Part shown: positions 57,706 through 58,895 of the stretch, piece by piece
Layout: every line of letters begins with the position of its first letter
How positions within the stretch are numbered: position 1 is the stretch's first letter
Assembly: GCA_963931925.1 (NCBI GenBank)
Contig: OZ007569.1
Coordinates: 68,307,420-68,371,419, forward strand
DNA from: Onchidella celtica
Taxonomy: Eukaryota > Mollusca > Gastropoda > Systellommatophora > Onchidiidae
Length of the DNA: 64,000 bases
Reading direction: 5' to 3'
Translations under genes and position numbers: made by a program
The notes under the pieces: generated by a model
Seen by the model: only the letters and a program-made list of their open reading frames with translations
Told to the model about the DNA's origin: nothing
Database searches by the model: none

Positions 57706-57795
57706 AAAAGATTCGTTCATTTATTTCCGTGGGAATTATAATCATAGTCACAATCTATCTAATGTTAGTCAAGTCAAAATATCTAATGTTAGTCA

Positions 57796-58344
57796 AGTCA
57801 AAATTGGGCAAAAAGAAAAGGTTGTATGTTGCAAAACCGCGCGTGAGAAATAAAACCCAAACAATACAAAGCAAACTAAAGAGAAGACAGAAAATACACA
57901 AAATTTTCGGCTTTGGCCTTTTTCAAGTGAAAAAAAAAAAAAACGAACAATAAAAGACTTCAACAGGAACGAAGTGAAACAGTTTACTTAGCTGCGAGTT
58001 CTTGTTTCGTTAGCAGCACCAAAGCACGTCAGTCCGCCAAATGCATGGAAGCTCGAAGCGGACGGACGTGCTTTGGTGCTGCTAACGAAACAAGAACTCG
58101 CAGCTAAGTAAACTGTTTCACTTCGTTCCTGTTGAAGTCTTTTATTGTTCGTTTTTTTTTTTCACTTGAAAAAGACCAGAGCCGAAAATTTTGTGTATTT
58201 TCTGTCTTCTCTTTAGTTTGCTTTGTATTGTTTGGGTTTTATTTCTCACGCAGGGTTTCGCAACATACGACCTTTTCTTTTTGCCCAATTTCGACTTTGC
58301 TTATAGCTCTGCTGCGACCCCACGGTTTTTCTGTGGTTTTTTTT
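57796..58344. mobile_element. Fold-back element with ~240-bp arms in stum intron 2
   Basis: The left arm 57795-58037 (243 bp) and right arm 58058-58297 (240 bp) are reverse complements with about eight mismatches and a 3-base difference in an A/T tract (14 A versus 11 T), roughly 97% identical. The loop is 20 bp (58038-58057). A further 47 bp follow the right arm, with a small hairpin (CCACGG TTTTT CTGTGG) and T8. A perfect 17-bp direct repeat, ATATCTAATGTTAGTCA, lies at 57779-57795 and 58345-58361 and looks like a target-site duplication. There is no coding capacity, so it is non-autonomous. Each arm contains AAAGACCAGAGCCGAAA-like text, similar to a short motif common in animal repeats, possibly Penelope-like; that link is a guess. 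Single-arm relatives are at 31436 and 33821. Confidence 0.8.
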
Positions 58345-58895
58345 ATATCTAATGTTAGTCAGTAGTTCACATTATCACTGTTCACTTGTTTATAGGTCAA
58401 TTGTATATTAATACTTGACGGTGATATGTGGACTTGGAATGTCATGTCTAAAAACAAAAGCAAAGTTTACACCAGCTTCTTCTTCAGGCTTGAACATGAA
58501 TGTAATTATGTAAGCTTATCTGCGATGTCGCAAATTGCAACATTTTTGAGACATTCCTTCGTGGACTGCGCGGATCTCGATTCGTCCTGTGATAAATCAT
58601 TGATGAAACACAGTCTTGTTTTAGGGCATATTTGCTGCAATGATACATTTTGTTTCATCTTTTGAACATTTAGCTTGCGAGATATGTTGAGTGTATCGTG
58701 AGTAATAAAAATGTGAGGTGTAAAAAGTAAGAACAATGGATCTTAATCGTTTGGTCTTTGGGTGTTTGGGAGATTATTTGCCAAACTAAAACCATGTGCA
58801 GTATATAGTTTTTAGTTACCTTTACATATTATTAGAACAAAACTGGTCTAGTGCGTTTGCACATAAGTAAAGAAATGTTTCCTTCAATTTTACAG

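What the first reader, a model, noticed from the sequence alone, without database searches (positions are those of the whole stretch)
57779..58361. Young fold-back element with near-perfect 240-bp arms inside stum
The sequence shows two arms about 97% identical, a 20-bp loop and a 17-bp perfect flanking direct repeat, with no coding capacity. A 17-bp target-site duplication is longer than that of most cut-and-paste DNA transposons and suits target-primed insertion, so the mobilising machinery is an open question. High arm identity means recent formation or gene conversion between arms.
Basis: seen in the sequence. Interest (0 to 1): 0.7.

Follow-up and report, generated by a model that had tools for sequence, protein, structure and literature searches.

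The report
Palindrome left by Penelope retrotransposon insertion
This near-perfect DNA palindrome is one of many insertions made by a Penelope-like retrotransposon that seems to copy its RNA into DNA from both cut ends of the target at once, a footprint that bears on how this poorly understood class of mobile element moves.

Summary
The palindrome is real: arms 57795-58037 and 58058-58297, 20-nt loop, flanking direct repeat. The repeat is a target-site duplication of 16 bp rather than 17, with a third copy in a 24-bp tandem on the left. It is not a one-off: the own-genome search scored 40 of 3247 candidates, all copies, with target duplications that differ between sites. The arm is the 3'-terminal unit of a Penelope-like element (PLE): the same unit follows long open frames, three of which were shown to carry reverse transcriptase and C-terminal GIY-YIG domains. 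One arm of each pair carries an extra 3' 'tail', as in PLEs. In 13 of 13 inverted pairs of coding copies exactly one arm has the tail and the pair is head-to-head; 8 of 20 sampled tail ends have an inverted partner, always tail-less. The tail-less arm often reaches further 5' than the tailed arm (7 of 10 coding, 18 of 29 short, 4 of 8 sampled pairs), here too, so copy-back does not explain them. Best explanation: PLE protein acting on a short RNA, reverse transcription primed from both target ends, the two cDNAs joined in the middle.

The parts
57756..57771 (+). outermost copy of the 16-bp target-site duplication TATCTAATGTTAGTCA
   Evidence: flanked on the left by C, so the duplication is 16 bp
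57756..57803 (+). 24-bp tandem duplication (16-bp target repeat + first 8 bp of the arm, twice)
57780..57795 (+). second copy of the 16-bp target repeat, next to the tail-less arm
57796..58037 (-). tail-less arm (antisense to the PLE 3' unit, unit positions about 240 to 1)
58038..58057 (-). 'loop': continuation of the tail-less arm to unit position about -20, a recurrent 5' end in the family; absent from the other arm
58058..58297 (+). tailed arm, unit positions 1-240
58298..58345 (+). PLE-type 3' 'tail' present on this arm only, with hairpin CCACGG-TTTTT-CTGTGG (58320-58336) and T8A
58346..58361 (+). right copy of the 16-bp target-site duplication

Best explanation
A short non-coding RNA, starting about 21 nt upstream of the 3'-terminal unit of a Penelope-like element and reading through it, was mobilised in trans by the PLE protein (reverse transcriptase + GIY-YIG endonuclease). 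The protein made a staggered cut of about 16 bp. Both free 3' ends of the target then primed reverse transcription inside the RNA, one at the 'tail' start site (unit about 285-306; about 285-288 in this copy) and the other at a site about 45-60 nt nearer the 5' end (unit about 240). Each cDNA ran towards the RNA 5' end, and the two cDNA ends were joined head-to-head; filling of the staggered ends made the duplication. When both cDNAs run nearly the whole short RNA, the product is a near-perfect palindrome. SHOWN: family, PLE link, one-tail rule in the pairs examined, TSDs, head-to-head order, non-nested arms, recurrent 5' end. INFERRED: the transcript, trans-mobilisation, priming from both ends.
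For: The unit lies about 260-280 nt after the stop of five open frames of 819-949 aa; three of these were scanned and have RVT_1 and C-terminal GIY-YIG matches. 2191 exact copies of a 32-nt tail end in the genome, 0 in the control. Flanks share 9 or more bases in 30 of 40 copies against 1.3% of 1560 mismatched flank pairs. 13 of 13 coding inverted pairs have one tailed and one tail-less arm; of the 150 endonuclease hits listed, all 10 neighbour pairs within 10 kb are head-to-head. 8 of 20 systematically sampled tail ends have an inverted partner, 8 of 8 without tail. Tail-less arm longer at its 5' end in 7 of 10 coding pairs, 18 of 29 short pairs including this one and 4 of 8 sampled pairs. 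Central junctions abut or overlap by up to 5 nt in 9 of 10 coding pairs. Short copies without an inverted arm start at -20 to -22 in 7 of 10. A lizard PLE protein cuts and extends both strands and has two RT start sites that bound the 'tail' (PMC11167929, main text read).
Against: [quoted passage not shown] Arms of a pair share source-specific variants: only 6 of 55 non-CpG differences have both alleles common elsewhere, against 122 of 224 ordinary departures, so one RNA molecule or one locus templated both; two separate RNAs are not shown. In short palindromes a central deletion after copy-back could mimic non-nested arms. In 3 of 10 coding and 9 of 29 short pairs the tailed arm is the longer, as copy-back would allow. 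Twelve of 20 sampled tail ends have no inverted partner within the 620 bases looked at. This copy ends in T8A instead of the usual T5-ATGATA, and its 24-bp tandem is unexplained. PF01541 is below its cut-off in two of three frames and PF00078 in one of three.
Confidence: 0.8

Rival explanations
1. Snap-back: one target-primed cDNA folds back on itself, primes copying of itself and is then joined to the other target end, giving a palindrome. The element is still a PLE product.
For: Self-priming was proposed for PLE inverted repeats, on an antisense template (PMC3846280, Discussion read). Snap-back junctions are described for R2 proteins (PMC11371274 and, at low frequency, PMC11331408; passages). 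Arms share source-specific variants. The tailed arm is the longer in 3 of 10 coding pairs and 9 of 29 short pairs.
Against: Copy-back gives nested arms. The tail-less arm reaches further 5' in 7 of 10, 18 of 29 and 4 of 8 pairs, by up to 1306 nt (L080), while only the other arm has the tail. It also does not explain why the second arm begins at unit 236-246 in 23 of 29 short pairs and 238-245 in 13 of 13 coding pairs.
Confidence: 0.15
2. DNA transposon of the fold-back (FB/Galileo-like) or long-TIR MITE kind, moved as DNA by a transposase.
For: Long inverted arms, no coding capacity, many copies.
Against: The outer ends differ (tail on one side only), inner ends differ from copy to copy, copies with no or very short second arm exist, TSD length varies, and the unit belongs to an RT-encoding element.
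Confidence: 0.02
3. Palindrome propagated as one hairpin RNA: an existing inverted pair is transcribed through and inserted as a unit by ordinary one-ended target priming.
For: Many nearly full palindromes exist.
Against: The start of the tailed arm takes 15 different values in 18 near-full palindromes (L001, L009-L025; BLAST ends, so approximate), so most were joined separately; simple and partial forms share the same outer ends.
Confidence: 0.03

Closest known systems
Penelope-like elements with inverted pLTRs, e.g. Pen2a_Av of Adineta vaga (PMC3846280; passages and Discussion read)
   Same: Head-to-head inverted terminal units of about 200 bp, one shorter than the other, an optional 31-bp 'tail' on one of them, TSD.
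   Different: Here the inverted pair stands alone without an ORF in many copies, the shared flank is 12-17 bp in 23 of 29 pairs instead of the 8-10 bp of the examples in those passages, no second direct unit was seen around five long open frames, and the arms are often not nested, which speaks against the self-priming proposed there.
Poseidon of Anolis carolinensis (PAc) in vitro (PMC11167929; main text read)
   Same: RT starts inside the RNA at two sites that bound the tail; the protein cuts and extends both strands.
   Different: There no strand difference in start site was seen; here each inverted pair examined has one end from each site.
R2 snap-back junctions (PMC11371274, PMC11331408; passages read)
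   Same: Target-primed insertion with an antisense stretch at the 5' side.
   Different: Low-frequency class in PMC11331408, and arms would be nested; here inverted pairs are 8 of 20 sampled tail ends and often not nested.

Membership tests
Penelope-like element (product of) | ORF with reverse transcriptase and C-terminal GIY-YIG endonuclease in elements carrying the same terminal unit | tested here: met
   three frames scanned, RVT_1 25.7/31.1/30.3 bits (cut-off 29.6), GIY-YIG 21.2/21.2/23.8 (cut-off 22.6); the window copy itself has no ORF
Penelope-like element (product of) | 'tail' on one of two inverted terminal units | tested here: met
Penelope-like element (product of) | variable target-site duplication | tested here: met
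Penelope-like element (product of) | direct terminal repeats (pLTR) from tandem arrangement | tested here: not met
   L072-L076 show one sense unit each within 5.5-6 kb; those copies may be 5'-truncated. L061 has two unit pieces in the same direction, not examined further
Penelope-like element (product of) | hammerhead ribozyme in the terminal unit | tested here: not met
   no Rfam hammerhead match; scan for core with stem II found none in the arms at up to 2 mismatches; a degenerate CTTGAAAAAGGC-GAAA-GCCGAAA is present. In PAc the ribozyme is not needed for insertion in vitro
Penelope-like element (product of) | RT of the telomerase-like PLE clade | not tested
   no tree built; phmmer against PDB gave no hit at 0.01
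Fold-back DNA transposon | symmetrical inverted ends and fixed short TSD (definition recalled) | tested here: not met
SINE of a LINE | 3' end shared with a LINE or poly-A, pol III promoter (definition recalled) | tested here: inconclusive
   3' end is shared with the PLE; tRNA scan of the window none; no LINE library was available

The most novel reading that the evidence does not exclude
PLE integration is a two-ended reaction in which each target strand primes at its own start site on the RNA (tail on one side, no tail on the other), so that inverted, non-nested cDNA pairs are a normal product; a short promoter-bearing RNA of the PLE 3' end exploits it as a SINE-like parasite that leaves palindromes.
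Probability: 0.6. Interest if true: 0.75.

Novelty: new variant of a known kind. Interest (0 to 1): 0.58.

Why it matters
[quoted passage not shown] one published reading of their inverted ends is self-priming. The footprints in this genome show one tail per inverted pair and often non-nested arms, which point to priming from both target ends. With more than two thousand tail ends to examine and an existing in vitro system, the idea can be tested directly.

Tried and rejected
Rfam: only matches below gathering scores, mostly microRNA models in the first scans, as expected of any long hairpin. Hammerhead ribozyme: strict core pattern at chance level in the window (3 found, 3.86 expected); scan with a stem requirement found none in the arms. 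Cephalopod-type SINE motifs recalled from memory: no match. Scan of viral contigs with a family pattern: none. Similarity of a diverged window copy's flank (54.8 kb) to the target repeat: reached by 1.7% of random stretches, dropped. DNA-transposon reading (hAT-like end) considered from memory and dropped. Nearest-neighbour test of arms (partner nearest in 1 of 19, one of the 19 not scorable) first looked like two unrelated templates; the allele test shows it is what a star-like family gives, so it is not used as evidence. PDB sequence search of the endonuclease piece (best E 0.44) and of the whole frame (none): nothing useful. Pfam on the first endonuclease piece found no GIY-YIG; the longer frames did. 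Empty-site test: not done, no second haplotype or relative is held.

Dropped rows and biases: the 101 matching pieces were merged by hand to 40 places; they were ranked by similarity to a palindromic query and so are biased to palindromes. L036 (identical to L035) was dropped; it is counted. Of the 30 copies with a shared flank of 9 or more, 25 end flush with the inverted arm; L029, L042 and L044 are simple or nearly simple insertions whose repeat lies further out, and L034 and L040 lie in local repeats. Shared stretches can include a few bases common to target and element. L026, L027, L037, L038 and L047 are rearranged and their classes are uncertain. Ten of the 13 coding pairs were fetched because two endonuclease hits lay close together. 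The 20 sites were picked by a tail, so they cannot show pairs without tails; L105 among them is hard to read. In one search, L056 has no unit match, and L061 and L082 have an extra unit piece that I did not explain.

Full report
Observation. The palindrome is present as described: arms 57795-58037 and 58058-58297, 20-nt loop. The perfect 17-bp direct repeat is 57779-57795 and 58345-58361. Its last 16 bases occur a third time at 57756-57771. The left two copies form a 24-bp tandem made of the 16-mer plus the first 8 bases of the arm. The base left of the outermost copy is C, not A, so the duplicated target is TATCTAATGTTAGTCA, 16 bp. The tandem may be a later slippage or an aborted first attempt; this is not resolved. 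The right arm continues for 48 nt (58298-58345) that the left arm lacks, ending in a small hairpin and T8A.

Family. The 583-bp stretch searched in the window's own genome (1.14 Gb, 43 contigs) gave 3247 candidates, of which 40 were scored; the 101 matching pieces merge to 40 places, the window's own included. I fetched the other 39 with flanks and mapped the unit U (window 58058-58345) on all 40. Every copy but one (L038) has a sense unit starting between U1 and U24 and reaching at least U282. In the other copies ...CTGTGGTTTTT is followed by ATGATATTTCGTGAATTTCT or a variant, cut off at different points. Of 39 copies (L036 dropped as identical to L035) 29 have a second unit in opposite orientation; it begins at U236-246 in 23 of 29 and ends at very different inner points. 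These copies were ranked by similarity to a palindromic query, so the share of palindromes among them is biased. An exact 32-mer of the tail end occurs 2191 times in the genome (1071 + 1120; reversed control 0).

Target-site duplications. Left and right flanks share 9 or more exact bases in 30 of 40 copies (median over all 40: 13), against 1.3% of 1560 mismatched flank pairs, whose longest is 13. In 23 of the 29 inverted pairs the shared stretch is 12-17 bases. The sequences differ from copy to copy except in the identical pair L035/L036.

Which element. Two copies (L032, L045) continue upstream into shared sequence. Behind L045 an open frame ends ...TPHGINVQQCLR 290 nt before the unit; it looked to me like a PLE endonuclease end (recall), and Pfam on that piece did not show it. 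A genome search with it scored 150 of 1164 candidates, all 150 matching, with open frames up to 949 aa. Three of the longest frames have reverse transcriptase (PF00078: 25.7, 31.1, 30.3 bits, cut-off 29.6) and C-terminal GIY-YIG (PF01541: 21.2, 21.2, 23.8, cut-off 22.6) matches. In five long-frame loci (L072-L076) the unit lies about 260-280 nt after the stop. RT plus GIY-YIG in one ORF is how canonical Penelope-like elements are described (PMC11167929 main text; PMC3846280 passages). The arms of the window palindrome are therefore the 3'-terminal unit of a PLE family, without ORF.

The tail rule. In PLEs a 31-bp 'tail' is optionally present on one of two inverted terminal units, and in a lizard PLE the tail is the stretch between two RT start sites inside the RNA. 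Among the 34 coding loci examined (L053-L086, several overlapping; one, L056, without a unit match), 13 distinct inverted pairs were seen (L058, L064, L073, L077-L086): 13 of 13 have one arm with the tail and one that stops at U238-245, and all 13 are head-to-head. Ten of them were fetched because two endonuclease hits lay close together in opposite orientation. A check over all 150 listed hits finds 10 neighbour pairs within 10 kb, 10 of 10 head-to-head, none tail-to-tail or in the same direction. As a second sample I took every fifth of the first 100 listed tail ends (20 of 2191, all on contig C1): 8 of 20 have an inverted partner and 8 of 8 partners lack the tail. Six of these 8 have a 12-15 bp TSD at or within 3 nt of the tail-less arm's end; of the 12 without a partner, 2 have a TSD (11 and 12 bp) next to the 5' end.

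Against copy-back. If one arm were copied from the other by self-priming, the second arm would be contained in the first. In 7 of 10 coding pairs (L080-L086) the tail-less arm reaches further towards the PLE 5' end than the tailed arm, by 112 to 1306 nt; in 3 (L077-L079) the tailed arm is longer. Among 29 short pairs 18 are non-nested in this sense, 9 have a longer tailed arm and 2 are equal within 2 nt; five of the 29 are rearranged and uncertain. In the systematic sample 4 of 8 are non-nested (L087, L096, L098, L105), L105 being hard to read. The window copy is non-nested: its tail-less arm reaches about U-20, its tailed arm stops at U1, and what looks like a loop is that extra 20 nt. In short palindromes a later central deletion could imitate this; in the long coding pairs that is strained. 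Central junctions abut or overlap by up to 5 nt in 9 of 10 coding pairs; L086 has a 23-nt gap.

One or two templates. Partner arms are rarely each other's nearest relatives (1 of 19 pairs, one unscorable), but this is what a burst of similar copies gives. Of 84 arm-arm differences 9, and of the 55 outside CpG columns 6, have both alleles in three or more other arms, against 122 of 224 ordinary departures from the majority whose allele is that common. So both arms of a pair probably come from the same RNA or the same locus and were nearly identical at birth. Most of the 8 differences in the window copy then postdate insertion; 3 of the 8 have both alleles common elsewhere and may not, and 6 of the 8 are in CpG columns.

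The RNA. Seven of 10 short copies without an inverted arm (L029, L030, L031, L039, L040, L042, L046) begin at U-20 to U-22 (ACTTCGAGC or a base or two later); the other three begin at U-5, U+1 and beyond U-60. Seven of 29 tail-less arms end at U-20 to U-23. I infer a short transcript with a fixed 5' end. The tailed arm's start takes 15 different values in 18 near-full palindromes, so most palindromes formed separately and did not spread as palindromes.

Mechanism. A lizard PLE protein cuts and extends both strands and starts RT at two internal sites. The footprints here fit priming from both ends of a staggered cut, one end using the tail site and the other the inner site, with the two cDNAs joined in the middle. 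Self-priming is the reading given for PLE inverted repeats in the 2013 paper. The in vitro work saw no strand difference in start site, which is against a strict strand rule but may reflect an uncoupled reaction. Three literature searches on PLEs in an open-access library listed no paper that I recognised, from title and start of abstract, as stating the one-tail rule with non-nested arms; most subscription papers are not held.

Verdict. Confirmed, and explained as a PLE product. The element is a new variant of a known kind (a stand-alone, SINE-like inverted pair), and the family bears directly on how PLEs insert.

Noticed in passing
window 33794-33987, 31433-31542, 54731-54832, 25579-25635: Older relatives of the same terminal unit, the best about 75% identical, the last two at chance-level E-values. 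At 54.8 kb the tail hairpin looks kept by eye with a changed base pair, but folding of that stretch did not give it.
   Followed up: partly
window 55394-55753: Open frame with Spec3 domain (PF15795, 61.8 bits), consistent with a stum homologue.
   Followed up: partly
window 17846-18293, 30146-30529, 53156-53587: Long microsatellites that read as LSIYLSIY or LSLSLS in open frames.
   Followed up: no
window 56730-56845 and 57595-57708: Another inverted pair, 74% identical over about 115 bp, just left of the element.
   Followed up: no
L049:3902-5419 (+): 506-aa open frame that looks like a GIMAP/AIG1-type GTPase by recall, near a frame that looks like a LINE reverse transcriptase fragment by recall; no Pfam result was obtained.
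   Followed up: no
L035 and L036: Two fetched stretches of 1650 bases, identical throughout, 131 kb apart on contig C5: a recent segmental duplication or an assembly duplicate.
   Followed up: partly
family unit, CTTGAAAAAGGCGAAAGCCGAAAA: Resembles a hammerhead core with the C3-G8 pair replaced by U-A (numbering recalled); older window relatives seem to have C and A at these positions.
   Followed up: partly
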